NCBI RefSeq assembly: GCF_030867095.1
Contig: NC_081824.1
Span: 118,428,162 to 118,492,161 of the forward strand
DNA length: 64,000 nt
DNA from: Alligator mississippiensis
Lineage: Eukaryota > Chordata > Crocodylia > Alligatoridae
Direction of reading: 5' to 3'
The notes under the pieces were generated by a model. The model had not been told where the DNA came from and ran no database searches. It saw only the letters and a program-made list of their open reading frames with translations. Both the position numbers and the translations under genes were made by a program. Shown in pieces: positions 15,152-59,436 of this stretch. The first letter of the stretch is position 1; every line of letters starts with the position of its first letter.

Positions 15152-15184
15152 GCTTTCATTGATACCAGAACAAGTAAACTAAGG

Positions 15185-15410
15185 ATGGGTCAACTGTGTG
15201 GAAAGTGCATGAAGCTGCTGCAGGACTTCGTGTCCTTTGTAAAGAGAATGTCCTCAAGTCTGGTGCAGAGAATTAAGGAGTGCTTGGTTATGATAAGTGA
15301 ATGCTCTTGCTTAAAACGAAATGGCTCTGAAGCCAGGCAGCTATACCAACCTGTCCTTCAGCCACATGAAAAGGAAACTGCACAAGAATTTCTGCAACAC
15401 ATAGAAACAG
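15185..15410 (+). CDS. Vac8-like protein, exon 1 (start codon, acylation signal)
   Basis: Encodes residues 1-75 plus one base. The start MGQLCGKCMK has Gly2 for N-myristoylation and Cys5 and Cys8 as palmitoylation candidates, like the acylated N-terminus of yeast Vac8. The ATG has a strong Kozak context (A at -3, G at +4). A pyrimidine-rich tract and TTAG at 15148-15151 make a good acceptor, so the exon likely begins at 15152 with 33 nt of 5' UTR; that TAG is also the in-frame upstream stop. A weaker acceptor lies at 15041. The donor GTGAGG starts at 15411 (phase 1). Residues 11-45 are rich in Cys, Ser and hydrophobic residues; residues 60-75 (HEKETAQEFLQHIET) look helical and lead into the first ARM repeat. 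The 12.9-kb intron that follows is the longest seen. Confidence 0.82.
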
Positions 15411-16640
15411 GTGAGGAAAGTAATTTTTTTTGCGCGTTTGGAAGGGAGAAATTTTTCCTGCATGTTGACAACAGGCAACGGATTGAACTGCTGTTCTGGC
15501 TTGGGGTTGTTCAGTTCAGTGTTGTAGTGCAGTGATAGACCTACAGAATTTGTCCTTCTCCGTTTGGGAAATCCAGGGGTCAAATTGGAATAAGAGCTGG
15601 ATACAAATGATCAGTAGCTTTCTATTATGCCACAGGTGCAAATGCATAACGTAATTTGTACACAAAAACATTTTTTATATTACAAGGATTTCTAGAAATT
15701 TAAATTAAAAATGTACTGGGTTATTCATTTTAAAGAAGACTCAGAGTCTTTGTTTTGTTTTCCTTTTCCATTTACTGGAATTACAGAATGACCCAGCTCT
15801 TTACTGATCCAAGTACAAATTAGGTACAGGTACGTGACAGGATTTGAGCAAGTGTTGTTTTAGGAAAATATTTTGCTTTAGAATTCAGAGAAAAATTAAT
15901 TTAATAGAGCTACTGTGTTCAATTAGATTCAGACCAGTTTTCCAGGAAACTCATCAACTAATCTGTTTCCTGCCACATACTTTATCAGGTCTATTAATTT
16001 ACCAGATGATAAGATCAGTGAGCTATGACCTTTTAAATTGCATTGCATTTCTGGGTACCATAAACAGCTCTCCATTCACATGGTTTCTGAAGATCCTTTC
16101 TCATGGCACCTAAATCTGGTGGTAGGTATTAGTTCAAGATTTAAGATTTGACTAGACTGCTAGTCATAGGTGTTGCTGTACCTAAATACTTTTAAGGGTC
16201 TCATTGCCCACTGCCTTGTATTTGATAGAATACCAAATGCTACTAGATCTAGAAGGGTAAATGCTTTCTACAAGTATAAATGGCTACATAACATCCAAGA
16301 CAGTGGATAATTTTGCTTTGGGGGTTATAATCCCATAAATTTCCTAAGACTTTGATGGAGGAAATGGTATAAGCTTCTGATAAAGATGACTGAACTATTT
16401 CAAAATGCATGGTGCTTGCTAGTAGTAACTGCACTAAGAATTTACAGAGTAGTACCCATTTAAATCAGGGGAATTATAACAAAGAAACTTGCATAAGTAA
16501 AATCAGAATTAGGCTCATTAATGTCTTCACCCAGCTTTGAGAGAGGAGCAAAGTCCTGACTTTTATGAAAAAAGAAACCCAACGACTGATTGTTCAAGAG
16601 ACCAACTTACCTTACAAGAAGAAAAATATTTGAAAAACTG
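15411..16640. other. Intron 1, first part, nothing recognised
   Basis: Ordinary AT-rich intron without resolved repeats or conserved blocks. Confidence 0.35.
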
Positions 16641-16652
16641 GTAATGTCAGAG

Positions 16653-16800
16653 TGATGCTGTAGCCATGATGGTCCAGGATTTATGTGAGGGGCAAGGATT
16701 TTGTGGGGGGTTATGTCTTTTATTAGACAAAATGCAGGGTTGGAATAAAGTTAGATGAGCTTTTGAATGCAAGACATTTATCAGGCCTGAGAAGGCAAGC
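16653..16800. repeat. Foldback family F fragment
   Basis: GTAGCCATGATGGTCCAGGA, then GGGGCAAGGATTTTGTGGG, TCTTTTATTAGACAAAATGC and GACATTTATCAGGCCTGAG follow the order of the family (GTAGCCGTGTTGGTC, CTTTTATTAGACC, CATCAGG). Only one arm is present. Confidence 0.5.
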
Positions 16801-17089
16801 AAATAAGCACAATGAATATAAAGAGCTGGGAGTAGAGCCAAGAGTGAAAACTGGGAAAGTCAAGTAATTTGTATATTTTCTCCAGAGCAAAGTTAGTTTG
16901 CTACTATTGTCAGGACTATAGTCTAGATTCTCCTCCCAAATCACCTCTGGCAGGAGACCAAACATGGAGAATTTCCACTTAGCGAGGATTTGTTTGAAAG
17001 ACAGAGGCTTGTTTCTCATGGAATTTGCATTGCAATGTTTGAGACTTTCACAACCAACTGGATCACAGGTGTCAAACTAGCCTGCTGCC

Positions 17090-17350
17090 CTGGGACAGAT
17101 CTGATCTGCTGTGGCTTCAGCATGGGGTGGCCTTGGTGGCAATGCTGGTGGCAGCTCTGGCTCCTCTCCAATGCAGACAGTAGTGGTGGCAGCTCCAGCT
17201 CCTACTGTATGCTGCATGCCCCTTGCCAGAGCTAGAGCTGCTGCTGTTGCCCTGGGCCTTGTGCCACAGTGGTAGCACATGGGGTACATGGCTCTGACAG
17301 CTCCAGCTCTGGCTTTGGCATGGGGCAGGCAGCACATGGCAGCATCAGGT
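17090..17350. repeat. GC-rich imperfect GCTCC/CTGGCAGC repeat block
   Basis: Reiterated GGTGGCAGCTCTGGCTCC-like and GCTCCAGCTCTGG units with partial inversion. Probably the GC-rich core of a decayed element; no ends found. Confidence 0.35.
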
Positions 17351-18783
17351 CTGTTGACTGAGGAGGTAGAGATGCGTCAGCAGTGATAAATGAAGCAGCT
17401 GGAAGTTGACCGGGATTTCACCCTCCTGCTGCCAATCACCATGTCCCCTGGGGCCCAAGAGCCCTGGATTCTTCTGCAGGCCACTCCACTAGCCATGCCC
17501 CACAACTTCCAGAGGCCCACTGATAACTCAGTGGGCCAGATACAGCAGCTTCATGGGCCATCTGTTGACACCCCCGAACTAGAGCATTTAGCTATGCAAC
17601 TTCCACTGTAGGAAAGTCTGTATTGAGTCAGGCACAGCATCAGAATCGGGAACTATTCCTAAAAGAGGCTATTTCATTTAATATCTCAGGACTTATTACA
17701 ACAAGTACCCAAGTAATTGTGTCAGTGTAGTCAGTCTTACAGATCTCTACCTATGTCTGTATTTCAGCCTTCAGGTGCTTAGAAGGCTGCAGGAAGAACT
17801 CACTATATTTTCTAAGGTTCACCTCATGCATTTATAAGCACAGCATTCTTCATTTTGCTACAGTTCAGAACTTCAGCTTTAGCTTTATTCAAGCACAGAC
17901 CAGGTTGATTTTTGAAAGGCCCTAACTTGGCCTCCAGTTTTGTCTGTAAGGTTGTGTGATTAGTGACAGGCACCAATGATGTAGGGCATGTCTGCACTTG
18001 AAAGTTGCTGGAGGTTTTGTGTATCTGTGAAGTGATCTGTAACAGCTCTTGCATAAGTGTCATGCCTACACTGCATTGTTTTCTGGTAATTAAGCTATTT
18101 TCACCATGGAGGCTACATAGCACACTGTTATTTCAAAATAAGCTCTCAGCATTTTGCTCACATATCCTGCAGCAGCTTGTCTGTTGCCTTTTAAGCTTTC
18201 TGGGGTTTTTCATACTGTACATTGTGGCGTCCTTGCCAGAAGGCAGTGGGACCCCGGGGCACTGGGTCAAACTAAATAATTCCACGATTCCTCATTTCAT
18301 CCCATTATGTCTTTTTTGTGAGCCAGAACCAGTTTTAAAGTTCTGCCAAGCAGCATGGAGAAAACCTCGGGGAGTGCTATGATCCACAGAGTGATTAATA
18401 TATGCAGGATCCTGCAAGCATATCTAAAGCTGGGCAATGACTTCAGAATCAGGGGGATAAGGGCATCTGAGCAGGAGGAGGATGTTGGACTCAAGCCAGT
18501 CATTTGCCTAGATCTTTTCTTAGATCAGGTTTGCTAAGTAGAGTAAACTGCTTTTGCACTCACCCAACAAGCACTATCTAGTGGGATAGCTTAGTGCTGC
18601 AGACCTGGGATGACAAGATGTAGCAGCAGAACAAAACAGTCAAAAGCTACTATCCTAGAAATGTATGTAGGATTTGCCCAGTGCTACAGTGGGAAACATC
18701 TATATGAAAATTCTGCATAGCTTAGAGAAGTATAACACTGTTTGGGAGCTTGCCACCACTGACTGCTGCTAGTCAGCAGGGCT

Positions 18784-18993
18784 AGGGACAGAAGGTACAC
18801 CTAAACTGGTTTAAGGAATCAGAAACTGTTTTAAACCTGTAACAAAACATAAGCTCAGTGGACATAAATCAGTTTCAAAATGTCCCAAACTGGTTTAAGA
18901 TAAACTGGGTTAAATGTAGTATCAGACATAACTGATTTGGGTCAAACTGGTTTATGGAACTTTTGTCCCAGACCTCTTCCTGGTTTAGGTTAA
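18784..18993. mobile_element. Short MITE, related to family G
   Basis: The left end CTAGGGACAGAAGGTACACC and the reverse complement of the right end (CTGGGACAAAAGTTCCATAA, from 18974 or so) form an inverted repeat. The body repeats AAACTGGTTTA in both directions (18805, 18895, 18945). Superfamily unknown. Confidence 0.45.
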
Positions 18994-19259
18994 GTCAGAG
19001 TCCCCCAGCATCCCAGAATGCTTTTCATCCCTGGGCTGGGCTGTCTGCTCCAAAAAGCAGGGCTGGGCCCACTCCTCTCCTCCCTAGCCACAGCACTATT
19101 ACTGTTCTGGCTGGGTGAGAAGCAGATGGGAGTCTGCCTGGCAGGGCACAGCAGCATCTGCCATGCTCCTCCTTATCCTCCCCTCACTGGTCACAGCTCA
19201 AGCAGAGATCCCTCTCTTCCCTCTTCCACAGCAGAGATGTCAGCAGCAGGGACCCAAGT

Positions 19260-19261
<2 letters not shown>

Positions 19262-19322
<61 letters not shown>
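19262..19322. repeat. (TG)n microsatellite, about 30 units
   Basis: Uninterrupted TG dinucleotide run of 61 bases. Confidence 0.97.
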
Positions 19323-19323
<1 letters not shown>

Positions 19324-19835
19324 TAATTTCAGTGGAACAGAGTCAGACAGAACAGTGTTCACTTAGGACTTTCTGGAACTAATCAGGTGTAACCCAGGTG
19401 GTACTCCAAGAGGTACCCCCTCTCCAGTTGAAGGGATCAAAACAGGTGCACAAGCACTATGGGAGGTGTAGGGACTCTCCTCCCCCTATAGAGCAGAGCC
19501 AGAGCACCAATGGGGACTTAACCATACACCTTTTAATGAGAGAACAGTAGTGGGAACATAACAGGCATAAACCAGGGGGTATAGGAGACACTACAGTGCC
19601 CCAAGGGGCAGGATTCAACAAAGGTTAGACACTTAGAATCATAGACATATTCATCCATTTGACAAAAGACAGGGTTAACACAAACAGCAAAACAAACAAT
19701 GCGGGTTGGAGAAATATAAGAGGCACAAAAAACAAAATGTCAAATAACAAGGAATGTAGGGCCTAGGTACCTGCAGGGGGAGAAAGCACAATGTCCCCTT
19801 TTTACTGCAACAAGAATTTGCCCTTGCTACTTCAC

Positions 19836-19907
19836 TCACCCCACCTAGGACTTGACCTCAGGTCTCCCCCATGGTAGGCAGAAACTCTACCACACAGCCA
19901 CCAGTGC
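19836..19907 (-). pseudogene. tRNA-Gly-derived pseudogene or SINE head
   Basis: On the minus strand the sequence begins GCACTGGTGGCTGTGTGGTA and continues GAGTTTCTGCCTACCATGGG, then GGAGACCTGAGGTCAAGTCC. This follows tRNA-Gly (GCATTGGTGGTTCAGTGGTA start, CTGCC-type anticodon arm, GGTTCGATTCC T arm). The anticodon position would read ACC. The T arm and 3' acceptor stem are degraded, so it is not a functional tRNA. It may be a tRNA-derived retroposon whose 3' body extends to lower coordinates. Confidence 0.5.
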
Positions 19908-20350
19908 TTATATTACTTTAGGCTGCTAGGGGTCTTGACCTTTCCAGAGCCCTGGCCTCACATCAAGCTGCCTGGTCTCTTATTGGAGGAGCTGGAAGCA
20001 GAGCTGGGGGAACCCCTCAGGTCGCTGCTCAGATCCTTGCTGGAGCTGGGGAACCTCTCCTGCTGGACACAGCCTCTCATAGGGGATCCTGGAGCCCAGC
20101 AAGGAGCCTCTCCTGCCAGCTGCACACCATGCTGCTGAGGGCCCAACTGCTGCCTCCAAATCCCACTCCTTCAGGCTCTTCTGGGTCAACTGCTCCTGCC
20201 CTGCTGGCCTAGCTCTTGCCAGCTCTTTGAATCTCCTTCCTTGTGGTCCCTCACTGGTCTCCCTTGAGTCAGCCACGCTGCCCCTTTTATCCCCCTCCAG
20301 GTGACCTAAGGGGCCAATCAGGGGACACGGAGGGTGAGTCTCTGGGGCCT

Positions 20351-20504
20351 GATTGGTGTGGAAAGGGAATCCCAAGTCCTCCAATCATCTTTTACCCCTT
20401 CAAAACCCCTGGGCCAAATCATTACCAGATTGGTGCGGAAAGGGAATCCCAAGTCCTCCAATCATCTTTTACCCTTTCAAAACCCCTGGGCTAAGCCACT
20501 GCCA
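20351..20504. repeat. Tandem duplication, 2 x 77 bp
   Basis: Unit 1 (20351-20427) and unit 2 (20428-20504) both begin GATTGGTG and contain GGAAAGGGAATCCCAAGTCC, CCAATCATCTTTTACCC and CAAAACCCCTGGGC. They differ at about ten bases near the ends, so the duplication is fairly recent compared with its surroundings. Confidence 0.9.
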
Positions 20505-20797
20505 GCTAGTCCATCACACAGCGCTGCAGCCAGGCTGCTGCTTCCTGAGCAAGAAGCTGGTGGCTTGCAAATGCAAATTCACCCTGAAGGTAAGAAGAGC
20601 TTGAAACTAATGAAACAGATGCTTTTGTTTTCTTTTGTAGGGCTTCATGGACTGATAAGCCTTGTGTTCTGATAAGCTCCCTGCTGGCTTGCTTCAAAGC
20701 TGTCAAAGTGCAGGCATCTCAGAGGCAGTTCTGAGAGGCTTTGGTACCATTTAATTCCTGTCTACAGCTTCAGATAGCATGAAGAAACAGGGAGAGG

Positions 20798-21039
20798 CAT
20801 GGTGACTGGTGGCTTCTGAGTCTGGGGGGGCACCAGTGGGGCACAACTGGGGGGTCCCCCAGCAGCCAACTGGCAATCGGGGGGGGGTCTGATATGCTGC
20901 CAGTGGAGCCAATTTTAGGGGGGGCATTAACGCTCTCCATGCCCCCCTACCAGCCGGAGTGCTCATTGTCAGGGGTGGCACCAGCACTCTCGGGGGGACA
21001 CATGCCCCCCCCCCCATGTCCCCTTATGTGTTGCCTATG
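20798..21039. mobile_element. Short hAT-type MITE, CATRRG-ended family (copy f, 242 bp)
   Basis: The duplication GGGAGAGG at 20790-20797 and 21040-21047 is perfect. The left end is CATGGTGACTGGTGGC and the reverse complement of the right end is CATAGGCAACACATAAG. It shares the CAT-A/G-GG..ACTGGT type of end and the GCACCAG/GCCCCC body with the copies in the CR1 at 53.5 and 54.7 kb. Confidence 0.8.
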
Positions 21040-21192
21040 GGGAGAGGGATCCAGTATCATCAGCAGATGCATGGACTCCACACAAGCAGTTCCTCCCTCC
21101 CCACTTTGCCTCAGAGTGCTAGCTAGGGACCAGGGCCTGGCAATACTCCCTGCCCCCTGAGGGGGGTGTGTGTGTGTGTGGGGGGGGGGGGT

Positions 21193-21254
21193 GTTAGACT
21201 AACCTGCAAAGATTGAATCAATTCAGGCTTAGACTTTTTGACAATCTGTCCCTA
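21193..21254. repeat. Family G MITE fragment
   Basis: GTTAGACTAACCTGCAAAGA, TTGAATCAATTCAGGCTT and TTGACAATCTGTCCCTAG match 12910-12967. It abuts a GT/G-run (21167-21192) and lacks its left end. Confidence 0.6.
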
Positions 21255-22497
21255 GCCCAGCTGACCACTTAGTAGATCAACCAACAAGGCTGTTGCAATG
21301 GTAAGGGTTGCTGCTGTCATGACGCTGAGCAATGTACAGGAAATTATTGATGGGTTTGTATAGATAGAATTCCCAAATTGTACAGGGGCTAGTTATGGGA
21401 CCAACAAGTCTATACTTTGCCCTCACACCAATTTCAGATTTCATCAACAGAAAAAGAATATTTCTTCATAGGTCTTTCAGGCTAGGTTGAGTATGTGGAG
21501 TGTTCACTAATATTAATGTGGGGTAATCTGAGAAGATCTACAATAACAAAGTCTTCAGAAACTCTGGCCTGTTGTCTTCAGTGAGAAATGGAACTTTTGC
21601 TTTGATGATCTGTATTGACTGTCAGAATAGGGTAGTATCCCAGTCTTGGTAAAGGCAAGCCCATGTTATATGCTTCTTACTAAGAACCGTTCCCCCTTCT
21701 TGGAGAAACAAGGCAATATCACTGGACAAATACTTTATATGACAACAAAATAATCTCTTTATCCATACTGTTATCCAGAGGTAGTATCTCCTTGGAAATA
21801 TCAGAAGCAAACCCACAAAGAGATGCCCAATAGAAACTGTGTGTTAACATTTTCCCACCAAAGTAACCCTACCTATAGAGAGTAAGATTCTCTGACCTGT
21901 TCCAGCAGACTGGTAACCTGTGTCCCAATCGATCCTGTCCCAATCAATCTTCTTCATGTTCTCGGAAGCTGTATTGTCACTTGAGCTCAGAAACCTGAAT
22001 CCCTGGTACTTTTGTGGAGACTCATTCCAGTCTTTGGGACTGTTACATTAGTCTGGATTGTCCTGCTGGCCCCAAGCTGCTTTCTGTCTCTCTGTTGTAG
22101 CCATCTAGCACACACCAAAACTTCCTGCACTGCAACAGCATGCTTATTATCTGCTTTCCCCCAGGCCAGGTGACTGGCCCAGAGTCACCCAGGGAACCCA
22201 ACACTGTTTTTCTTCCAACTCTAGGCTCTCTGGCTCAGATAGATGGGCACTGCCCTGGAAGGGAGGGGGGCCTTGGGCTCTTCCTCTGCCCTCAGTGGGT
22301 GTACCCATAGCGTATTGCCCCCAGAAGCTCTCCCACTGCTTCTACAGAAGTTCTCACACAATCCTGGTGACATACTAAGGAGGGGAGTGGGGTGAAGGGT
22401 GAGACATTAGTGAGATCCTGGGCACAGAAGCAAGAAGGTAGATTTTAAGAAATGAGCCAAGGTGGTGAAAATGTGGCTGGAATTGCAGATATGGGAT
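21255..22497. other. Intron 1, no gene recognised
   Basis: Ordinary sequence. At 22160-22230 AGGTGACTGGCCCAGAGTCA is a weak MIR-like trace; too decayed to call. Confidence 0.3.
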
Positions 22498-23776
22498 TGT
22501 CACGACAGGGTCCTCGCAGAGGGCTGTGATCTCCTTAAGGTCCCTCGCTCCGTGTCAGGCCAGCCCAAGACACCCTCTAGTTCTCGCCCGCCACGTCTTT
22601 GATGGTAAATATAATGATGGGAGGCTGCCTTGTGTTTTCCCTGGGCACGGCTACTCGGGACCTCTGTCCCCGCGGTTCTTCCGGACCCCCTGGGGGTCTC
22701 CCGATATGGTGGGTGTTCCCCAGACACCCTAGCCTTGTGGGCTATGCATGGCTCCTACCAACCCCTAATACCACACCCCAAGCCTCGCAGATGTGATAGA
22801 CGTTGTCGGGTCTGTACACCCACTTCCTGGGCCTCCTCTAAAAGTGTAGCCCACGCTGGGCTCCCTCTCTCGTGCCCAGCCTCTTGCTGGGACTCTCTAG
22901 CGGGCCTCCGGTCCTATGGGCCAACCGCACGGGCACCCTCTCTGACCCTGGCTCACCGCACTGCTACTCCCTGTCTTCTCGGGGCAACCGCAGCGCCCTG
23001 CCTTGGTCCGAGGGGTGTTACCGCACTAGCCTGCGGCCGGGCTCGCTATGCCCGTCTTGGGCTTCTCAGTAATTGCCCCTCTCTCTAGGGCTCCTCAGTA
23101 TGGCGCTCCCCCCTCTTTGGGGCTCGCCGTGCCCACTCTGGGCTACTCAATAATACCGCCCCTTTCCCGGGGCCGGGGTCTGTGTTCCCCCACACGCAAT
23201 CCGGGGTCTAGGTCCCCGTCCGTAACCTACGGGTTGCGCCTGCGACCCACTGGCCGCGCTCCTCGCCGCCAGTTGCTCACGCACTGGCGTGTGAGCTGCG
23301 CCTTCCCCGGCGCTATGCAAATAATACGCCCTCTTGGCGCTAGGGCACCCCACACTCTCTGGGGTCCCTGTGATTGAGGCCTCCTCCAACCCCTACAGCC
23401 TCACCCAAGCCTCCGGGTGTAATAACACAAACACAAAGCAAAACCACAAGCCTCTAGGCTGTAACATAACCACAAGCTGCATGGCCATAACTCATTATCA
23501 TAGCTCGAGCCTCCAGGGCTATCATGAGCTGTACTTGCAACTCAGGCTCCTTCCCAGATCTCAGCTGAGGGAGCTTCTGCCTCTCTGGCTGCTGGCAGAG
23601 AACTGCCAGCCTGGCTTCGGCCCTGGGCTTTATAAGGGCCAGGCCCTGCCCCCTACAGGCAGCTGGCTCCCCTTAGTTGCTCCGGCAACCCACAGCTGTG
23701 CTCAATTAGCTCTGCCAGGGCTCTCTCCCTGGCAGTTTCTCCTCTCTAGGAGCAGGCACTAAGGTGCCCTGCGACA
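22498..23776 (-). mobile_element. Probable solo LTR (1279 bp), minus orientation
   Basis: The sequence is flanked by the 5-bp repeat GGGAT at 22493-22497 and 23777-23781. Read on the minus strand it begins TGTCGCAGGGCACC and ends CCCTGTCGTGACA, i.e. TG...CA with inverted ends. On that strand a TATA-like TTATAAAG sits at 23635-23628, about 140 bases from the 5' end. The 3' two thirds are GC-rich with reiterated GGGCTTCTCAGTAA and GGGGCTCGC-like motifs (23050-23160). No polyadenylation signal AATAAA is visible. A retroviral-type or Gypsy-type LTR fits best. A TIR transposon with a 5-bp duplication is the alternative. No internal coding sequence is present. Confidence 0.68.
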
Positions 23777-23789
23777 GGGATTCACTTAT

Positions 23790-25300: not shown

Positions 25301-25308
25301 TACATCTC

Positions 25309-28357: not shown

Positions 28358-28477
28358 GTTTTGAATTGTCACTGCTTGGAAAGAACTCTCTGGAGGCTCT
28401 GAGAACGTTGGCATTTTCAGAAAACCCTGGCTTGCAACAGTCTGCTGCACTCTATTACTTACACCTGAGCCAACACT
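28358..28477 (+). CDS. Vac8-like protein, exon 2 (ARM repeat)
   Basis: Residues 76-115. The acceptor is CTACAG at 28352-28357 and the donor GTAAGT starts at 28478. It is 120 nt long and phase 1 at both ends, giving the codon GGT at the junction with exon 1. It reads GFELSLLGKNSLEALRTLAF then SENPGLQQSAALYYLHLSQH. This has the ARM pattern of two hydrophobic helices with a Pro/Gly turn, and matches the first ARM repeat of Vac8 ([23 protein letters not shown] in yeast, from memory) in position and spacing. Confidence 0.83.
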
Positions 28478-31437: not shown

Positions 31438-31557
31438 TAAACAGAGACCTAGTTGTCCAAATGGGTTTACTCGAGCTAATTCTGGAGCTTCTTGAGTTGG
31501 GGGATTCCACTGTCCAGTGTAACTCCTGCGCCTGCATAATGACCTTGGCTGCCTCAG
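31438..31557 (+). CDS. Vac8-like protein, exon 4 (ARM repeat)
   Basis: Residues 156-195. The acceptor is GAATAG at 31432-31437 and the donor GTGAGC starts at 31558. It is 120 nt long, phase 1 to phase 1. It reads INRDLVVQMGLLELILELLE then LGDSTVQCNSCACIMTLAAS. The VQCN tetrapeptide and the following cysteine-rich helix match the Vac8 repeat with VQCNAVGCITNLA. Only 742 bp separate it from exon 3, the shortest intron of the gene. Confidence 0.84.
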
Positions 31558-39279: not shown

Positions 39280-39402
39280 AGTCCAACCAAGAGGCCATAA
39301 CTTCAGCAGGAGGAGTCATACCTTTACTGGCGCTGGCCAACTCCTATGATCCTAGGGTCCAACAAAATGCAGTTGGAGCTATTCTTAACCTCACACAATC
39401 AG
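39280..39402 (+). CDS. Vac8-like protein, exon 5 (ARM repeat)
   Basis: Residues 196-236. The acceptor is CACCAG at 39274-39279 after a C/T-rich tract, and the donor GTACTT starts at 39403. It is 123 nt long, phase 1 to phase 1, one codon longer than the three exons before it. It reads [20 protein letters not shown] then [21 protein letters not shown]. This is a textbook ARM repeat: acidic/Asn start, AGGVIPLL turn and helix, D-P-x-VQ, then NAxGAxLNLT, which resembles RVQRNATGALLNMTHS in Vac8. Confidence 0.88.
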
Positions 39403-42134: not shown

Positions 42135-42217
42135 AATGGATCCAACAAGTCCTGTGCAGGGAGGGAGCCCTCCCAGTTCTTACCTTGCTGTTAGAGTCTC
42201 CTGACTCAGAAGTGCAG
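42135..42217 (+). CDS. Vac8-like protein, exon 6 (first part of an ARM repeat)
   Basis: Residues 237-264. The acceptor is TTGCAG at 42129-42134 after a T-rich tract, and the donor GTAGAG starts at 42218. It is 83 nt long, phase 1 to phase 0. It reads EWIQQVLCREGALPVLTLLL then ESPDSEVQ. This is the first half of an ARM repeat; the second half begins exon 7, so the phase-1 pattern of exons 2-5 ends here. It aligns with the Vac8 segment around NAGAVPVLVSLLSSTDPDVQ. Confidence 0.85.
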
Positions 42218-43967: not shown

Positions 43968-44093
43968 TATTACAGTTGTACTGCTCTAAGCAACCTGGCA
44001 GCCAACTCCCATCACCATGAAGCGATGCTGAGAACTGGTGAAGGGTTCCTTCTGCGGACACTCATTTCTCTCTTGTTTTCATCTGTGGAAAAG
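43968..44093 (+). CDS. Vac8-like protein, exon 7 (ARM repeat)
   Basis: Residues 265-306. The acceptor is TTTCTTCAG ending at 43967 and the donor GTAAAG starts at 44094. It is 126 nt long, phase 0 at both ends. It begins YYSCTALSNLAANSHHHEAM and then LRTGEGFLLRTLISLLFSSV. Joined to exon 6 this gives VQYYSCTALSNLA, the stretch most like Vac8 (VQYYCTTALSNIA). The end (SSVEK) runs into exon 8. Confidence 0.86.
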
Positions 44094-44282
44094 GTAAAGA
44101 AGAGAATACAGGGAGAGGTGTGTACTTGCAACAACAGTAGCAAGCTATGTCCTGATGCTCCCTTAATTGTGTATGTTACACCATAGCTTATTCACACTGA
44201 GTGTAACTAAATTGACCAGGCTCCCCAATTATAGTGTAAAGCAAAAGTAGAAGAGACTCCCCAAATGCAGTATAGATTGCTT

Positions 44283-46110: not shown

Positions 46111-46114
46111 GCTG

Positions 46115-47631: not shown

Positions 47632-47677
47632 GTTTCAAGCCAGGCTTGTGTTTGTTTGAGAAATTTGGCTGTAAGTG
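47632..47677 (+). CDS. Vac8-like protein, exon 8 (46-nt mini-exon)
   Basis: Residues 307-321 plus one base. The acceptor is TATTCAG ending at 47631 and the donor GTAAGT starts at 47678. It is phase 0 to phase 1. It reads VSSQACVCLRNLAVS, the third helix of an ARM repeat (compare VKCQATLALRNLAS in Vac8). It is short, but the phase fits both neighbours, both splice sites are good and it falls exactly where this helix is needed, so I regard it as real. Confidence 0.8.
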
Positions 47678-48959: not shown

Positions 48960-49070
48960 AAGATATATAGAGAGAGAGATACACAGAGAGAAAGCACACA
49001 AGCTTTTGTGAACCCAAGTTCACTTCATCAGGTCTTGTGAAAGGACAGCATAGATCAGAGTATATAGTGG
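48960..49070. repeat. Fragment with 'AAGCTTTTGTGAACCCAAGTTCACTTCATCAGG' type core
   Basis: CACACAAGCTTTTGTGAACC and CAAGTTCACTTCATCAGGTC match a dispersed amniote motif (AAGCTTTCGTGAGC, CACTTCATCAG) related to family F (CATCAGGCCTGAG at 16780). Confidence 0.4.
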
Positions 49071-49303
49071 AGTAAGTAATTAGAATACAAACTGGTAGGA
49101 ACATGGCGGGTGGAGGGCGGAGAGGGGAAGTGCTGTGAGAGGCAAAGGGCCCATAGAAATAAGATTGTTGGCTAGTGAAGAATGCACTGGTCCTTCATCC
49201 TAAAGAAAATAGCCAGAAAGTTGCTGTATTTCTTTGATGGCATTTCCACAGCCTGTACTTTGTGGTGCTTCTCTTTGGGATTTGCATGATGAAACGCATG
49301 TAA

Positions 49304-49580
49304 GGGCACATCCACACATTGCCCTATGGCGATGTTGTTAATGCACTGTGCTTTAGTACTTCCTTTTGGAAGTACTAAAGCACGGCGCAATAACTGCCCA
49401 TATTATGCCATAAGTGTGGTGCATGGTTATTTTTAGCAGCTACTTTGCCATAACAGCATGCTATAATGGGGGAGTGCGCTGCTACAGAGAAGTAGCTGCT
49501 GGTCATGCGTAGACACCCATGGATGCTACATGGCTGTAGCGCATTGCTACAGCAACATAGCATCGCATGTAGACATGCCC
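49304..49580. mobile_element. PIF/Harbinger-like MITE (277 bp)
   Basis: TAA at 49301-49303 and 49581-49583 flank the ends GGGCACATCCACACAT and (reverse complement of the right) GGGCATGTCTACATGC. A 3-bp TAA duplication with GGG-type ends is the PIF/Harbinger pattern. An inner palindrome TTTAGTACTTCCTTTTGG/AAGTACTAAAG lies at 49351-49380. The CTACA-type ends resemble the families at 13375 and 29247, so the superfamily call is uncertain. Confidence 0.55.
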
Positions 49581-49589
49581 TAAAAGTAC

Positions 49590-50888: not shown

Positions 50889-51022
50889 TGCACATCCAGG
50901 CTGACATCATTGCTATGGATGTCCTGCCCCAGCTGCTCTCCCTTCTTGCATCCAGCAGTACAGACGTTCAGCGAGCTTCCATTGCGCTCCTTTGGAAATT
51001 ATCCCAGCACCCAGGCAACCAG
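50889..51022 (+). CDS. Vac8-like protein, exon 9 (ARM repeat)
   Basis: Residues 322-366. The acceptor is CAAACAG ending at 50888 and the donor GTAGGG starts at 51023. It is 134 nt long, phase 1 to phase 0. It begins VHIQADIIAMDVLPQLLSLL and continues ASSSTDVQRASIALLWKLSQ, then HPGNQ. This has ARM spacing with LPQLLSLL in the second helix. It lines up with the Vac8 repeat that begins LEIVRAGGLPHLVKL and ends in the sequence HPLNE. Confidence 0.86.
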
Positions 51023-52390
51023 GTAGGGATAGCAGTATGTCAAAAGCAATGTCAGGAGAACAGTTCTGGTCAGTGCCTTGAAACCCTTAATACATCTTAC
51101 CACGTGGTGTTATAGTAATGGCGTTAATTAAATATATGTTATGAATGACTGATATAGATACTTTGTATGAAGTAAAAAAGGGTCTTATCCAAAGTACCAT
51201 AGTTTAGCTACTGCAGTCATACCTGGCCAATTGTTACAGAGGTTGTGTGGGTTAAGAACTGTTCTGTTGGGGTGGTGGTTAGTAGGTAAGCAGAATCCAG
51301 TTAGTAGGTAAGGAGAACCCAGTGGACATTGAGCTTAACATGGCTCCCTTTTATTGTTGATCAACTGTACAGAAGGGCAGGTTGGATGCTGGGGCCACCT
51401 GAAACAGCCCATGCTGTGATTGCAACACCACATTCCATGCACTTCTGCAGTAGTGATTCAGGGCAAAGGGGTTTCTTAGGTTGGGAGATGAGTAGCACAA
51501 TGGGAGAACTTTATAATGAGACAGACCTGAGCAAGCTTCTTTTTGGCACAGGGGTTGGCATAACAATTATGACTAGTGTCCCCAGAGGCACTCAGGAAAG
51601 TTAAGACACAGTTGTGAAGTTGAACCACATGAACTCCCTGTGCAAACACTCTAATTCTAATGTAAAGTAATCTTAGTTCACTTCAGTTGAATGCCTTTTG
51701 AATGATGATTAAATTCACACAGGAGAAATGCAATTTAACTTCACACCATAACTCAGATTTCCTTAGTTTTCTTGAGGATCTGTTTGTTGACAGATCGTTT
51801 GGATTTGGTTAGTTTAGTCACCTCTGTTTAAGTTAAACAGCACCATAAACCATGCAATTTTATGCTCATACATGCCCTTTTTAAAACAAATATGGAACCA
51901 TAAACCAAAGGCATTTGACTGCTGTATTTTCATTGTCTATTGAGAGAGAAATGTAAACAAAGCATAGGCTAGTGAAATTTAGACCTCCAAAAGTTATTAC
52001 AGTCACTAATGGCATCCTAAGTAAAATTGGAAAGGAATTTTTAATAAAAGATTTTTAAAACTAGTAGTAATCTTTAAAGACAGCATTTAAGAATGTAATG
52101 CAAAAAGGTGGAAACCTTTCTTATGATCTAGCATTATACAGTACTGACAAGATAAACTGAGCCATAACTAGTCAGATTAGGTGTTTTTAGTGATTGATAA
52201 CTGGAATAGATTTGTGCCGGTTTGAAACTCCCACAGGAACCCAGTGCTTTATGTAAAACAAAGAAAAAAATCAGTCTTGTACAGCATGGGCAAAATGAAT
52301 GCCTCCAATTCAATGGTGCTCTGGGAAAAGAGAAGAGATGCATTATCAGAGCAGTGCCTGAAGACAAAATATCTTTCAAAGACAATATGC
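51023..52390. other. Intron 9, first part
   Basis: AT-rich, no element recognised. Confidence 0.3.
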
Positions 52391-52399
52391 TTATTAGCT

Positions 52400-52500
52400 T
52401 TTTGTGTTGTGCTAGCGGGGATCAGGGCCCCATTGTGCTAGGTAGTTTATATACATAAACAGTTCTGGTTGCAAAGAGCTTAGAATTTAAACAATCTACG
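52400..52500. repeat. Ancient L3/CR1-type 3' fragment
   Basis: GGGGATCAGGGCCCCATTGT, GCTAGGTAGTTTATATACAT and AAAGAGCTTAGAATTTAAAC match the widespread amniote '...GGGCCCCATTGTGCTAGG...CAAAGAGCTTACAATCTAA' repeat. Confidence 0.6.
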
Positions 52501-53516
52501 TCAGTGGGATTACTTGTTAAGCAAGGTGTTACTTAGCATGAACAAACGTATTCACTTTTTTTGCCTATAGTAATGAAGTAATTAATTTAACCAAGAAAGG
52601 TACTTCTTGCTGTTCAAACCCTGCATTCACACACAAACAATCCCTTCCCTGCTTCTGAAACACGTGCCAAACAGCCAGTCAGATGAAAGCACAGCAGGTC
52701 TGTGTGTCAAATAGAAGCAGAGATTCAGTTTGAATATCTCAAAAGTGAATGGTCAGTTCTTCAACAACAGTAAAGGAAAGAAGGAATTGAGGGCCAGAAA
52801 CAAGAAACTTTGAAGTGAAATGTCATCTCCAGGTTTGTTCTCCAGAAAGAAGTATTTCCATTTGAAAATGTATTTAATGAGCCAATGTCACTGGCACTCA
52901 CTACTTTGCATTGTGAATGTAAAACAGCTAGTGAAGTGTCTAGGCAAGCGAGGCAAGCGATTGATCCATCAGGCCCTCCTCCTTCCTCCATCCAGCCCAC
53001 TGTCATGTCTATTCTACCCTATTTTTCAGATCTTTCAAGGTTTTCACCTCTAGCCTAGTCTGAATTGTGAGTGAATTAGAGACTTCTCCATGGGAACAGC
53101 TATAGGAAAAATCCCAGAACAAAGCTAACCTTTACAACCTAGTGAAGTAATGCTTGAATTATTGCAAATACTACCTTGTTTACAAGAGGGCAGAAAGAAT
53201 CTGGCCTTTGGTTCCCGTGGACTGGATCTGCTGGAATGTTTCATGGAGCCTTCATTCCTTAACAAGAAGTCTTATATTTCACTGGCCTGGCTATTGCAAA
53301 GTCTCTGGTGACCATATGGCAGAACCAGGAAAGGTATAGAGAGAAGTCCGTGCAGTCACAGAATTATGACATGATTGAAATAATAGAGATGTGGTGGGAG
53401 CTTACATGACTGCAACACTGTCATAGATGGGTACAAACTGTTCAGGAAAGACAGGCAGGGGAGAAGAGGAGGAGGAGTTGGACTTTATGTAAAAGAGCTA
53501 TGTGCTTGCTCAGAGC

Positions 53517-53673
53517 CATGAGGGACTACTGCCTCCTGAATCTAGGGAGGCACCCGTAGAAGCTGCCAATGAGGGTGGCCCTGTCAGGGTGGGCACCAGC
53601 CCTACCAACAGCATCAGTGTCAGCCACTGGGGGGGTATGTGCACCCCCGTGCACTCCCTACTAGTCATCTATG
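53517..53673. mobile_element. Short hAT-type MITE, CATRRG family (copy a, 157 bp)
   Basis: It is inserted in CR1 with a perfect duplication CTCAGAGC (53509-53516 and 53674-53681). The left end is CATGAGGGACTACTG; the reverse complement of the right end is CATAGATGACTAGTAG. The body (CACCAGCCCTACCAACAGCA, TCAGTGTCAGCCACTGGGGG, GTGCACTCCCTA) is shared with copies b and c. Confidence 0.9.
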
Positions 53674-54682
53674 CTCAGAGCTCCAGTACAGAACTGGAGG
53701 TAGGCTTGTTGAAAGTCTCTGGGTTAGGGTTAGAGGGGAAAGTAACAAGGGTACTGTCATGGTGGGGGTCTGCTATAGACCACCAGACCAGGAGGATGAG
53801 GTAGATGAGGATTTTTTCAAACAGCTAGCAGAGGTTTCCAGATCACAGGCCCTGGTTCTCATGGAGGACTTCAATCAACTTGACGTCTGCTGGGAGGGCA
53901 ATACAGCAGTGCGCAGGCAACCCAGGAAGTTTTTTGAGAGTGTTGGGGACAACTTCCTGGTGCAAGTGCTGGAGCGGCCAGGTAGGAGCCGTGCTCTTCT
54001 TGACCTGCTGCTCACAAACAGGGAAGAATTGCTGGGGAATGTAGTAGTGGATGGCAACTTGGGCAGCAGCAGCCACAAGATGATTGAGTTCAGGATCCTG
54101 AGGAAAGGAAGGATGGAGAGCAGCAGAGTAAGGAGCCTGGATTTCACAAAAAAACAGACTTTGACTTGCTCGTGGAACTCATGGACAAGATCCCCTGGGA
54201 AGCCAGTCTGAGGGGGAGAGGAGTCCATGAATGAGAGCTGGCTGTACTTTAAAGACACCTTACTGAGGGCATAGGAACAAACCATCCCAATACGCAGGAA
54301 GACTAGCAAGTATGCCAGAAAACCAGCTTGGTTTAGCAAGGAACTCTTCAGTAAGCTAACACACAAAAAGGAAGCTTGTAAGTGGTAACTTGGACAAATA
54401 GCTAGGGAGGAGTATAAGAGTATTGCTCAGGCATGCAGGGATGAAGCCAGGGAAGCCAAAGCACAATTGGAGTTGCAGCTAGCAAGGGATATCAGGGGTA
54501 AAAAAAAAGGGTTTCTACAAGTATGTCAGTAGCAAGAAGAGAATTAGGGGAAGTGTGGGTCCCTTACTCAATGGAGGAGGTAACCTTGTGACAGAAGATG
54601 CAGAAAAGGCTGAAATGCTCAATGTCTTTTTTGCTTCAGTGTTCACAGGCAAAGTCAGCTCCCAGACTATTGCACTGGGCAG

Positions 54683-54841
54683 CATGAGCAACTGGTACCT
54701 CCTAAATCTGGGGAGGGCACCAGCAGAAGCCACCAGTGGCAGCAGCCCTGACAACAGCATCAGTGTTGGCTGTCACGGGGGGCACTGGCCCCATCAGGGA
54801 AGGCACTTGCTCCCCCGTGCACCCTCTACCAGTTGCCTATG
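54683..54841. mobile_element. Short hAT-type MITE, CATRRG family (copy b, 159 bp)
   Basis: It is inserted in the same CR1 with a perfect duplication CTGGGCAG (54675-54682 and 54842-54849). The left end CATGAGCAACTGGTACC and the reverse complement of the right end CATAGGCAACTGGTAG match at 12 or more of 15 bases. The body matches copy a. Confidence 0.92.
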
Positions 54842-56491
54842 CTGGGCAGCATAGTTTGGGGAGGAGGTGAGCAGCCAACAGTGTTGAAATAACAGGTTAG
54901 GGACTATTTAGAAAAGTTGTACATATACAAGTCCATGTGGCCAGATGGGATGCACCTGAGAGTGCTGAGAGAGTTGGCTGGTGAGATTGCAGAGCCCTGG
55001 CCATCATCTTTGAGAACTCGTGGTGATCAGCAGAGGTCCCAGATGATTGGAAAAAGGCAAACATAGTGCCCATATTTAAGAAAGGGAAAAAGGAGGATCC
55101 AAGGAACTACAGACCAGTCAGCCTCACCTCAGTCCTTGGAAAAATCATGGAGCAGGTAGTATTTGCTTCAAGGAATCTATCTTGAAGCATTTGGAGGAGA
55201 AGGAGGTGATTAGGAACAGTCAGCATGGATTCACCAAGGGCAAGACATGCCTGACCAACCTGATTGCCTTCTATGATGAGATGACTTGTTCTGTGGATGC
55301 AGGGAGACCAGTGGATGTGGTGGACCTTGATTTTAGCAAGGCTTTTGATATGGTCTCCCATAACATTCTCACAGACAAGCTAAGGAAGTACAGGGCTGGA
55401 TGAATGGTCTCTAAGGTTAATAGAAAACTGGCTGGAGCATTGGACTCAGAGGGTAATAGTCAATGACTCAATATCTAGTTGGCAGCCAGTATCAAATGGA
55501 GTGCCCCAGGGGTCGGTCTTGGTGCCAGTTTTGTTCAGTGTTTTCATCAGTGACCTGGAAGATGGCAGAGAGTGCACCATCAGCAAGTTTGCAGATGACA
55601 CTAAGCTGGGGGGAGTAGTAGATACATTGAAGGGTAGGGTTAGGATTCAGAGTGACCTAGACAAATTGGAGGATTAGGCCAAAAGGAATCTCATGAGGTT
55701 CAACAAGAAAAAGTGCAGAGTCCTGCACTTAAGATGAAACAATCCCATGCACTGACTGGTACAGGCTGGGGACTGACTGGCTGGGTAGCAGCTCTGCAGA
55801 AAAGGACCTGGGGGTTACAGTGGACAATAAGCTGAGTGTGAGCCAACACTGCCCCTGTTGCAAAGAAAGCTAACGTCATACTGGGCTGCATTGGTAGGTG
55901 TGTTGCCAGCAGGTCAAGGGAAGTAATTATTCCCCTCTATTCAGCACTATTCAGCACTTACAATATGGAGTATTGTGCTCAGTTTTGGGCCCCCCACTTC
56001 AGAAAGGATGTGGACAAATTGGAAAGAGTCCAGTGGAGGGCAGAAAAATGGTTCAGGGGCTAAGGCACATGACTTCTGAGGGGGCACTGAGGGAACTGGG
56101 CTTATTTAGTTTGGAGAAGAGAAGACAGAGGGGATTCCATTGCAGCCATCAACTACTTGAAGGGAGGTTTGAAAGAGGATGGAGTTGGATTGTTCTCAGT
56201 GGTGGCAGATAACAGAACAAGGAGAAAAGGTCTCAAGTTGCAGCAAGGAAATTTGAGGTTACATATTACAAAGAATTTTCTCACTAGGAGGGTAATAAAA
56301 CACTGGAGCAGGTTACCCAGAGAAATGGTGGAAGCTCCATACTTGGAGGTTTTTATACCCAGCTAGACAAAGCTTTGTCTAGGATGATCTAGTTGGGGAT
56401 GGTCCCATTTTGAGCAGGGGGTTGGACTAGATGACCTTCTGAGGTCCCTTCCAACCCTTATTTTCTATGATTTCTACGATGATAATTAGTG

Positions 56492-56769
56492 CAGTGGTTC
56501 TCAACCTTTTGGGATTCAAGGCACCCCTCCCTGGACTCAAGGCACTTTTCCACAACTTCTGTAAATTGAGTGGCACCTAATATCAGAAACTAATATGTGT
56601 ATTACAGTGCTTACCTTCTTGCAGAGGGCCAAGCAGTGTGGGTGGGGGATCATCCAGGCAGGAATAAACCTGAGCTTCCCTTATCTACTTATCTCTTCAC
56701 ATCTAGCACCACTGTCAACGTATTGCATGGCAGCCAAGGGTGCTGCAGGACTTTGGCTGAGAATCATTG
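56492..56769. mobile_element. hAT-type MITE (278 bp)
   Basis: The left end is CAGTGGTTCTCAACCTTTTG; the reverse complement of the right end is CAATGATTCTCAGCCAAAG. The flanks AATTAGTG and CATTAGAG agree at 6 of 8 positions. CAAGGCACCCCTCCCTGGACT and CAAGGCAC repeats follow the left end. It sits next to the 3' tail of the CR1. Confidence 0.75.
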
Positions 56770-56777
56770 CATTAGAG

Positions 56778-59307
56778 TAGGAGTAAGGACTTTGAGCCAA
56801 ATCAGCTGGCTCTCAGATTGACTGACTTTTCTTTGGATGCAAGGGGCTTGATCCTATTCCACTTATTAGGCCCCTAAGGTGGCCTAAGGACTCAGATGCA
56901 GTTAACTGAAAAAGCAGCTTGCTGCTTTTTGTAACTTAGTCTTAAGGTCAAGGTGAGGGTGTATTACGAAAGTAGATCATTTATGTTTTTTCAGGGACTC
57001 AAGCAAGGTGAAAGACAATCACACTTAAGCATCTACATCCATTAAGGAGCCTAAATGATTGAATAGAGTCAGGCCTGAAGTACCACTGCATCTTAGTTTC
57101 ATGTTCTGTAAATTGGGGATGAATATTTACCTTTGCTAGCACCATTCATCCAAAGAGTTCAGACTACTGAAATCAGGTATTAAAATTATGAATGAAGGTG
57201 CTGCTCAAATATTTTCTTTGACTAGTGCAGATTTGGTTCTTTTCCTGGAAATTCAAAAAAGTGTTTGAGTTTTCAGGAAATGTTTGGCTGAAACTTACCT
57301 GAACCAGTTAATTTGCTTTCTTCTGAGATTGCTGCTTCCATGGCTTTCCCTAACTGAACAGGAGATAAGAACTGGGTCTCTGACAATTGCCCACAGAGGC
57401 AAGGCACTTGACTTCACCTGAAGTTAAAATTTCAACACCTGTTACGAGATGAAGTAGTGACTAACGTATGTATATTAAATATATTGGAGAGGTTGGCAGT
57501 GGATCCATAATACACTGTAGAAGTGCATTTAGATTCTGTAGACAAATTAAAGACCTGAGTTTCTTTTCATTTTTAGCCAGTGAGAAGTAGCTCCATTGAA
57601 GTTAACAGTTACACAGGTTAAAAGAGAGAGGAGAATTATAACTACAATATCCAAAGTGGCCTTTATAATTATTTGGATGGATTCTAATTAGTTAAGATTA
57701 GGTGAGCTGTGTCTTTGTAGGGAAGGAAAGGTATCAGCATGGAAATGCACAGGCATACACCTGCACATAAAATATCTTCAGAGACACATGAAACTTAGAC
57801 ATCTAAATTAAACTAGACCTTGTTTCCTGAGTTTAACCACTATGCTGTACTTTGGATCTGTCAATTTTTATATTTTACTTAGCATTTTTTCTGGTTGTGA
57901 TTGTACTTGGAATGGATGCAACTGAAGGTGGCAGCCAATATCAAATCTATATGAAGACAAAATACACTTTCTGACATTTAACCTACAAACCAAGAAACAG
58001 TGCCATTTTAACTGCTTTAAAGCTATCTACCTTTGATGCTGCTTCAGTGATCATGACATTTCCCAAGCTCCAGAGTAATGCCTGTCATCTTAGCATGTTC
58101 AAAGGATTAAAGAGTTATTTTAAAGCTAAGCATCTTTCACTAGCAAGCCTTTGCTTCTAACAGTATGAAGAACATGGCACATTGCTGACTACACAAAGCA
58201 TAGTCGAATGTTCAAGGAGAACAGACTGAAAGAACAAATAAATATTACCTTTTTTGTTACAGTGTGATCATAGTCATCAGGTACCTTGTTCAAAGCCTAT
58301 TGAAGTTAGTGGGAAGTGACAATTTCCCCCCAAATGACTATGTGTCTCTACTGTTGAAAGGCTATATATATGGGAAGCCCTCTAGCTCATACTGAGAGTG
58401 GGGAAACCTGGCCAGAAATTCCAAACTTAAGTTACTGCCTGAGAGCCTTGATATTAGTAAAAATTGGAGAAGACTTAAGTTCAGCAGGAATGAAACTCAC
58501 CAACAGGCCATTAAACATCCACAGGGAGCAGAGAACCCCATACACAATTTCTGAAAGTATTTTCAGGACATCTGATTTTAAAATGATGCCTGATCACAAA
58601 CTGATGGAAAAAAAATAACTTTATCTGCCTAATATACAGATTGTACCCTCTCCCTGTCACAGTCCTCCAGATCTGCTCTCCCTTCCTGGTCACAGCCCTG
58701 CCCCTTCACAATCAAATGTTGCCTTTGTGGTTACTACAGCTATTGCAAACATGGTAGAGTTTATCTTAGGAAGGTATTTGATGAGTCTCTCCACCTCTCT
58801 TCTGGTGGGCCTTTTGGGACTCCGAGCTTTTTTTTAATGCCTGAACTCCTCAACTTATCATAGGTTGTTAGGGGGTCCTTTGTGGCTGTGGTATGCGTGG
58901 GGGGAAAAGTGGATGTTCTTGTGGACACTTTCAGCCATCACGTGGCTACCTGTGATCACAAGGGATTGGACTTCATGACATAGGTGGTTGCTTCACTCTT
59001 ATGTTCCCATGAGTTTCATCAGCCAGTGTCATAGACTCACCCAATCCGCACAGCACACCAGGTTTTCTGTAGAGGTCTCTGATATCCTCAAGGATAGCAG
59101 TCAATGGAGAACAAACTGAGAACGACAGCACAAAACTGCATCTACCCTGCAGCTGTTTTTTTAAGAGCATAAGCAAGGCTTATCTGGCACAGGTGAGATA
59201 GTCCTACCCATGACATTCTCCAGAGGGCAGGTCACTGCTGTAGTGTAGGCAAGTGGTTTATCCTTGTCTTTATTGAAGGAGATTGAATAGCTTATTGCTC
59301 TTGGCAG
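56778..59307. other. Intron 9, last part
   Basis: AT-rich, no element or conserved coding block recognised; acceptor for exon 10 at the end. Confidence 0.3.
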
Positions 59308-59436
59308 GACACACTTACATGTGGAGAGATGCTGAACACCCTGGGCAAGCTACTGCTAACTCATAAAGCAGATCCAGTGCTTGTTGGTCATGCTGCCTGC
59401 ATAATTAAAAACCTGATCCTTCCCCAAAACATGCAG
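59308..59436 (+). CDS. Vac8-like protein, exon 10 (ARM repeat; last exon seen)
   Basis: Residues 367-409. The acceptor is TGGCAG at 59302-59307 and the donor GTGAGT starts at 59437. It is 129 nt long, phase 0 at both ends. It begins DTLTCGEMLNTLGKLLLTHK and continues ADPVLVGHAACIIKNLILPQ, then NMQ. It has the ARM helix pattern but is less conserved than the earlier repeats. There is no stop codon and a consensus donor follows, so at least one more exon is expected 3' of the window. Confidence 0.8.

What the first reader, a model, noticed from the sequence alone, without database searches (positions are those of the whole stretch)
15152..59436. A Vac8-like, acylated armadillo-repeat gene in a vertebrate genome
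The ten exons, all with GT-AG sites and matching phases, give 409 codons without a stop. The order and wording of the ARM repeats follow yeast Vac8 (VQCN, GALPVL, VQYYSCTALSNLA, LRNLA), and the N-terminus has the same Gly2 plus Cys type of lipid anchor. Vac8 is known mainly from fungi, with the apicomplexan ARO protein as a distant parallel. A vertebrate counterpart with no obvious well-studied mammalian namesake is the most interesting gene here. That it is unstudied is my impression only.
Basis: partly seen in the sequence, partly recalled or inferred. Interest (0 to 1): 0.75.

Follow-up and report, generated by a model that had tools for sequence, protein, structure and literature searches.

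The report
Vertebrate Vac8 with a different anchor
This alligator gene is a vertebrate relative of the yeast vacuole protein Vac8, listed from sharks to birds but not seen in mammals, with a different membrane anchor and a changed partner-binding groove; I found no study of it.

Summary
Ten exons (15185-59436) join with GT-AG sites and matching phases into 409 open codons. The gene is longer than reported: four more exons lie up to 15.6 kb past the window, and all 14 reproduce the 574-aa database protein LOC102558480 of Alligator mississippiensis. No second copy was found.

The Gly2+Cys reading needs correction: Gly2 is kept in 115 of 152 rows, four cysteines (C5, C8, C40, C42) in 146-148. Vertebrate proteins hold an amphipathic helix, before or within the fungal-type cysteine cluster, that fungi lack. 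Two of three fungal-invariant arginines are mostly replaced. No listed row was labelled mammal. Best reading: an S-acylated organelle adaptor with changed partners; membrane and role are inferred.

The parts
15152..15410 (+). First coding exon: 33 bases of likely 5' UTR, then ATG at 15185. Encodes the N-terminal helix (6-38), Cys pair C5/C8, Cys pair C40/C42 and the LYxP...HE(R/K) linker
   Evidence: open frame and donor CAG|GTGAGG; equals P0001 residues 1-75 plus a split codon; Cys conservation
28358..28477 (+). Coding exon 2 (first ARM repeat)
   Evidence: AG/GT, phase 1-1; matches P0001
30576..30695 (+). Coding exon 3 (HLEPYYALLQSSDVEVQQ, the counterpart of fungal LEPILFLLQSxDxEVQR)
   Evidence: AG/GT, phase 1-1
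31438..31557 (+). Coding exon 4 (VQCNSCACIMTLAAS)
   Evidence: AG/GT, phase 1-1
39280..39402 (+). Coding exon 5 ([20 protein letters not shown], the best conserved 20-residue stretch among the vertebrate rows)
   Evidence: AG/GT, phase 1-1; conservation 0.90 over residues 221-240
42135..42217 (+). Coding exon 6 (GALPVLTLLLESPDSEVQ)
   Evidence: AG/GT
43968..44093 (+). Coding exon 7 (YYSCTALSNLAANSHHHE...)
   Evidence: AG/GT
47632..47677 (+). Coding exon 8 (VSSQACVCLRNLAVS; holds R316, the one of three fungal-invariant arginines that alligator keeps)
   Evidence: AG/GT
50889..51022 (+). Coding exon 9 (W357 in place of a fungal-invariant arginine)
   Evidence: AG/GT
59308..59436 (+). Coding exon 10 (K400 in place of a fungal-invariant arginine). 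Last exon in the window; exons 11-14 follow at window-equivalent 72508-72622, 74980-75114, 77581-77706 and 79431-79552, outside the window
   Evidence: AG/GT

Best explanation
This is the alligator member of a jawed-vertebrate family homologous, and probably orthologous, to fungal Vac8. The protein is a membrane-tethered adaptor. An N-terminal module of two cysteine pairs (C5/C8 and C40/C42) flanking a 33-residue amphipathic helix is S-acylated and lies on the cytosolic face of a membrane, most likely the lysosome or late endosome. In species with Gly2, such as alligator, it may also be N-myristoylated. A flexible linker (about 43-56) holds out an ARM solenoid whose best conserved part (about residues 81-320) binds a partner and so ties the organelle to another organelle, a motor or the autophagy machinery. 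Two of three arginines invariant in 119 Vac8 rows are mostly replaced, so the partners are probably not those of yeast. Shown: gene model, kinship, Cys conservation, predicted helix and fold. Inferred: acylation, membrane, partner, cellular role.
Against: No localisation, acylation or binding data. Gly2, needed for Vac8 anchoring in yeast (PMC6899017 passage), is not G in 37 of 152 rows, 4 of them gaps. The tree with paralogs does not separate them: the ARMC3-like and delta-catenin-like rows fall into an open polytomy with the vertebrate rows and ODAD2 into an open one with fungal rows, with long branches flagged; p-AU 0.407 for one Vac8 clade does not prove it. A genome-wide search with a fungal Vac8 found nothing (the tool says an empty answer shows nothing). 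The helix is not clearly amphipathic in one lizard (58/500 shuffles). Origin is open: no listed row was labelled invertebrate, and the lists were capped.
Confidence: 0.6

Rival explanations
1. It is a ciliary or axonemal ARM protein of the ODAD2/ARMC3/SPAG6 kind that resembles Vac8 only because all are ARM solenoids.
For: ODAD2 is the next natural sequence hit (61.5 bits); the tree with paralogs leaves the ARMC3-like row in an open polytomy with the vertebrate rows. A Nematostella apical-organ ARM gene was labelled 'Arm-repeat containing 4, yeast vacuolar protein 8' and marked cilia-related (PMC4300403, table passage).
Against: Under the vertebrate profile three fungal Vac8s outscore the ARMC3-like piece 3- to 4-fold and the ODAD2 piece 8- to 9-fold in bits, and residues 1-409 outscore both under the fungal profile (the ODAD2 piece is shorter, 282 aa). 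The YxP-E(R/K) linker after a cysteine cluster is shared with fungi; it was not looked for in ODAD2 or ARMC3.
Confidence: 0.08
2. A fungal Vac8 gene entered the ancestor of jawed vertebrates by horizontal transfer; the family is not vertical.
For: No row labelled invertebrate was seen in the three capped lists.
Against: With the root placed on vertebrates, they join outside the 15 sampled fungi, Anaeromyces leaving first (82/77, below the tool's strong-support mark), not inside a derived group. The inter-group branch is long and the gene has 14 coding exons. The lists were cut at 120 and filtered by length and shared words, so the absence of invertebrates is weak. 39 coral sequences were assigned KEGG K08332 'Vacuolar protein 8' (PMC3750612 passage), unsorted.
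Confidence: 0.08
3. It is a cytosolic ARM scaffold whose N-terminal cysteines bind metal or form disulfides; the helix is a protein-binding coil, not a membrane anchor.
For: Gly2 is absent in several lineages; a C-x2-C and a C-x-C pair could bind a metal.
Against: The cysteines sit in front of the same linker as the cluster that is S-acylated in yeast Vac8 (C4, C5, C7; PMC12734321 passage). The helix is amphipathic in 8 of 9 species.
Confidence: 0.2

Closest known systems
Fungal Vac8 (Saccharomyces cerevisiae Vac8/YEL013W and orthologs)
   Same: Collinear ARM solenoid, about 30-32% identity over most of the length; cysteine cluster followed by a YEPLLxxxEREA-type linker; best natural hit in sequence and in fold
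   Different: 38 more residues before the linker (amphipathic helix and a second Cys pair), placed before or within the fungal-type cluster; Gly2 not conserved; two of three fungal-invariant arginines mostly replaced; the C-terminal part is less conserved. Whether vertebrates gained or fungi lost the helix is not polarised
Toxoplasma TgARO
   Same: Acylated N-terminus plus ARM repeats, described as homologous to Vac8 and tethering an organelle likened to lysosomes (PMC3567180 passages)
   Different: Not compared by sequence here; the likeness is taken from the paper
ODAD2 (ARMC4), ARMC3
   Same: ARM solenoids; ODAD2 is the nearest natural animal protein in the PDB search (61.5 bits)
   Different: Far lower profile scores. 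ARMC3 pieces are named by recall; N-termini of these proteins were not examined
Beta-catenin, importin alpha
   Different: 14-18% identity in the rows shown; partial sequence match only

Membership tests
Vac8 | ARM solenoid collinear with Vac8 from the linker to near the C-terminus | tested here: met
Vac8 | Reciprocally closest to fungal Vac8 among the ARM proteins compared | tested here: met
   profiles both ways above the alligator ARMC3-like, ODAD2 and importin-like pieces. Limits: ANKAR not included; paralogs are exon pieces of 412, 282 and 167 aa, two of them named by recall; the genome-wide reverse search was empty
Vac8 | Grouping with Vac8 to the exclusion of other ARM families in a tree | tested here: inconclusive
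   three paralog end branches of 6-8.6 changes per column, flagged; ARMC3-like and delta-catenin-like fall with vertebrate rows, ODAD2 with fungal rows, at open forks; one clade of vertebrate plus fungal rows not rejected (p-AU 0.407) but not shown; three further clade tests did not finish
Vac8 | N-terminal cysteine cluster before the YEP-linker (palmitoylation sites in yeast) | tested here: met
   C40 146/152, C42 146/152, Y54 140/152; Vac8 rows have C 93/119 and 76/119 and Y 105/119 in those columns, and also C 94/119 in the column of C8, so the exact pairing of cysteines is unsettled. Sequence only; acylation not testable here
Vac8 | Gly2 (myristoylation site) as a family trait | tested here: not met
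   G in 115/152 vertebrate rows; absent in turtles, cartilaginous fish, four teleost rows and a caecilian; present in alligator itself. The Vac8 rows also vary (G 93/119), so it does not exclude membership
Vac8 | Three arginines invariant in the Vac8 rows (recalled as the Nvj1/Atg13-binding groove triad; papers not held) | tested here: not met
   R at 316 in 117/152, at 357 in 15/152, at 400 in 6/152; Vac8 rows 119/119 at all three. Lowers 'binds the same partners', not descent
Vac8 | Vacuole/lysosome membrane location and function | not testable with these tools
   no cell data
ODAD2/ARMC3 | Closest match to these families by sequence | tested here: not met
   ODAD2 61.5 bits against Vac8 212; ARMC3-like piece 82 against fungal Vac8 281-312 under the vertebrate profile
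ANKAR | Ankyrin plus ARM repeats, closest match to ANKAR | not tested
   no ANKAR sequence was obtained; no ankyrin domain among the nine Pfam matches of residues 1-409. P0152 bears the name but is a 570-aa hit of this family
Catenins / importin alpha | Closest match to these families | tested here: not met
   beta-catenin about 55 and importin alpha about 52 bits against Vac8 212

The most novel reading that the evidence does not exclude
Jawed vertebrates kept the opisthokont Vac8 gene as a lysosome-bound organelle adaptor with a double-cysteine/amphipathic-helix anchor and a re-specified peptide groove. The non-mammalian jawed-vertebrate groups listed here (cartilaginous fish, ray-finned fish, coelacanth, lungfish, amphibians, reptiles, birds) still carry it, while mammals lost it, so a layer of lysosome tethering or autophagy control is invisible in mouse and human work.
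Probability: 0.4. Interest if true: 0.65.

Novelty: new variant of a known kind. Interest (0 to 1): 0.48.

Why it matters
Vac8 works in vacuole inheritance, vacuole fusion, nucleus-vacuole junctions and autophagosome siting in yeast (PMC6899017 passages). A 2011 survey of distant catenin relatives speaks of vac8p in fungi and plants (PMC3141441 passages), and the passages of an ARMC review that mention Vac8 name only the yeast protein (PMC8666550). An intact, strongly conserved vertebrate member that seems absent in mammals would make testable whether Vac8-type tethering exists in animals, what replaced the yeast partners, and what mammals do instead. Chicken and Xenopus, which both have it, are ready laboratory systems.

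Tried and rejected
Tree with alligator ARM exon pieces (ODAD2 confirmed, the ARMC3, importin and delta-catenin names recalled): end branches too long; the ARMC3-like and delta-catenin-like rows land in an open polytomy with the vertebrate rows, ODAD2 at an open fork with fungal rows; the one-clade test for vertebrate plus fungal rows gave p-AU 0.407; three further clade tests did not finish and were not resumed. Replaced by profile scores and a vertebrate/fungus tree.

Reverse search of the whole genome with Mucor Vac8: empty, uninformative. Exon-by-exon scoring with a fungal profile: window exons sum 170.8 bits, next locus 77.7 (L002 and L005 carry the same ORF, counted twice), ARMC3-like 58.1; unequal stretches were compared, so I do not rest on it. 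Single exons do not discriminate (ARMC3-like exon 33.7, window exon 5 31.4).

A chance ORF chain was rejected by the letter-for-letter database match. A catenin-like protein was rejected by scores. 'Gly2 anchor conserved' was rejected by counts. My own first reading, that the helix was simply added in front of the ancestral cysteine cluster, was weakened on checking: one cysteine of the Vac8 rows falls in the column of C8 (94/119) and others at 40 and 42, so the helix may lie within the cluster, and without an outgroup gain and loss cannot be told apart. The Nematostella 'vacuolar protein 8' hit was not taken as an ortholog. Rfam: no match in the window at gathering scores. NCBIfam: none.

Not shown: absence in mammals and invertebrates. 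Only the best 120 of 271, 133 and 236 hits were listed, candidates were capped at about 8000 by shared words, one search covered proteins of at least about 566 aa and of at least about 598 aa, names are cut short, and some rows bear none.

About the counts: the 152 vertebrate rows are P0001-P0152; they include isoforms and several rows of one species, and three unnamed rows (P0107, P0120, P0128). The 119 Vac8 rows are P0153-P0271, 15 without any name, taken as fungal by their company; they were found with a query that held yeast letters, which favours yeast-like rows.
Full report
What is there. The window is G000:C1:118428162-118492161 of a 2.35-Gb genome. Its protein matches Alligator mississippiensis LOC102558480 at 100% identity (P0001). 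I re-derived the exons from splice signals and frames. Four further exons lie in the next 16 kb. The 14 exons give 1725 bases with a stop and reproduce the 574-aa database protein exactly. Exons 2-5 are 120-123 bases long and all phase 1-1, about one ARM repeat each. A search of the genome with the protein found 13 matches, all in this locus; it scored 20 candidates.

Spread. With an alligator query, 120 of 271 hits were listed: crocodilians, turtles, birds, tuatara, lizards, snakes, frogs, caecilians, axolotl and coelacanth. With a coelacanth query limited to proteins of at least about 566 aa, 120 of 133 hits were listed and added sturgeon, sharks, rays, chimaera, lungfish, eels and other teleosts. 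I saw no row labelled as a mammal or an invertebrate in these lists or in the 120 of 236 listed. Because of list length, word and size filters, and unnamed rows, this is suggestive and no proof.

Trees. In a tree of 14 vertebrate and 15 fungal proteins the groups part with full support. Rooted on vertebrates, Anaeromyces leaves the fungi first (82/77, short of the tool's strong mark), so the vertebrates join outside the sampled fungi and not within a derived group, as vertical descent predicts. The two cartilaginous fish, the three ray-finned fish, the tetrapods and the amniotes each form a group, as expected for inheritance within vertebrates. The tree with alligator paralog pieces failed as a test: three of five end branches are 6-8.6 changes per column, the ARMC3-like and delta-catenin-like rows fall in an open polytomy with vertebrates and ODAD2 at an open fork with fungal rows, and holding vertebrate plus fungal rows together is not rejected (p-AU 0.407) but not shown; three further clade tests did not finish. 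A genome-wide search with Mucor Vac8 was empty. ANKAR and ARO were not tested.

The anchor. Alligator reads MGQLCGKC, but among 119 vertebrate-list proteins of 560-600 aa only 84 begin MG, and in the alignment of 152 rows Gly2 is kept in 115. The turtle rows of that list (MA/MD/MS), cartilaginous fish (ME/MA), four teleost rows (MAS) and a caecilian (MD) lack it. C5, C8, C40 and C42 are kept in 147, 148, 146 and 146 of 152 and, with M1, are the only positions at 97% or more, gaps left out, within residues 1-53. In yeast Vac8, C4, C5 and C7 are palmitoylated (PMC12734321, passages), and both lipids are needed for vacuole location (PMC6899017, passages). C40/C42 stand before the shared linker as the yeast cluster does, and one search puts the cluster of the displayed fungal rows there; but one cysteine of the Vac8 rows falls in the column of C8 (94/119) and others at 40 (93/119) and 42 (76/119). 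So the vertebrate-specific stretch lies before or within the fungal-type cluster, and without an outgroup gain and loss cannot be told apart. The stretch is one helix, 6-38, in the model, amphipathic against 500 shuffles in 8 of 9 species tested (0-10 shuffles as high) and not clearly so in a lizard (58). I infer a two-point, mainly S-acylated anchor with a membrane-lying helix, with myristoylation as an optional extra in lineages with Gly2.

The groove. Vertebrate conservation is highest in residues 81-320 (0.76-0.90 per 20 residues) and lower after 320 (0.60-0.75). Three arginines on successive repeats are invariant in the 119 Vac8 rows; I recall these as the yeast groove triad that binds Nvj1 and Atg13, but the papers are not held. 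In vertebrate rows the first is R in 117 of 152 (N in 21), the second R in only 15 (W in 80), the third R in only 6 (K in 87). The yeast partner code is therefore not kept. There is a precedent: deleting Cryptococcus Vac8 has effects on vacuoles although many of the main yeast partners have no homolog there (PMC12734321, passages).

How it most likely works. An acylated, helix-anchored arm on a cytosolic membrane face, most likely lysosome or late endosome by analogy, carrying an ARM solenoid that captures a peptide of a partner. Gene, kinship, conserved cysteines, helix and fold are shown by sequence and model; lipid, membrane, partner and role are inferred.

What is known. Databases already name it automatically ('vacuolar protein 8-like', 'uncharacterized protein'). 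Eight full-text searches listed no study of a vertebrate member as far as titles and the starts of abstracts show. I saw one passing mention: chicken LOC421690 'Vacuolar protein 8-like' in a pituitary expression table (PMC5148799, passage), presumably this gene by its name, not checked. The 2011 catenin survey speaks of vac8p in fungi and plants (PMC3141441, passages). The library lacks most subscription journals. So: a known family, a vertebrate branch with a different anchor and a changed groove, apparently unstudied.

Noticed in passing
window 61940-62950 (-), 63380-63907 (-), 53639-54211 (+): Non-LTR retrotransposon (LINE) remains: a 336-aa reverse-transcriptase frame (RVT_1, 105 bits) and two endonuclease-like frames just under the Pfam cut-off. 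They lie between and after the exons; LINE and CR1 type are my recall.
   Followed up: partly
window 43968-44130: The crocodile protein P0002 carries extra residues (KKRIWGK) after exon 7, and the alligator sequence past the exon 7 donor stays open and reads similarly (VKKRIQGEV), so an alternative donor in frame is possible.
   Followed up: no
G000:C5:185.9-190.0 Mb: An ARMC3-like gene (186.4 Mb, name recalled), ODAD2 (190.04 Mb, confirmed by PDB match) and a SPAG6-like ARM exon (185.9 Mb, name recalled) lie close together on one contig, perhaps a cluster of ciliary ARM genes.
   Followed up: partly
P0152 (Plectropomus leopardus): Named 'ankyrin and armadillo repeat-containing protein' in the database but a 570-aa hit of this Vac8 family with no ankyrin domain in its listed Pfam matches: a misleading label.
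   Followed up: no
window 19018-19366: Long CVCVCV run in the frames, a (TG)n-type microsatellite.
   Followed up: no
coral Acropora digitifera (PMC3750612): 39 sequences were assigned to KEGG K08332 'Vacuolar protein 8' in one coral proteome (passage); whether any is a true Vac8 or all are other ARM proteins is unknown and bears on the origin of the vertebrate gene.
   Followed up: no
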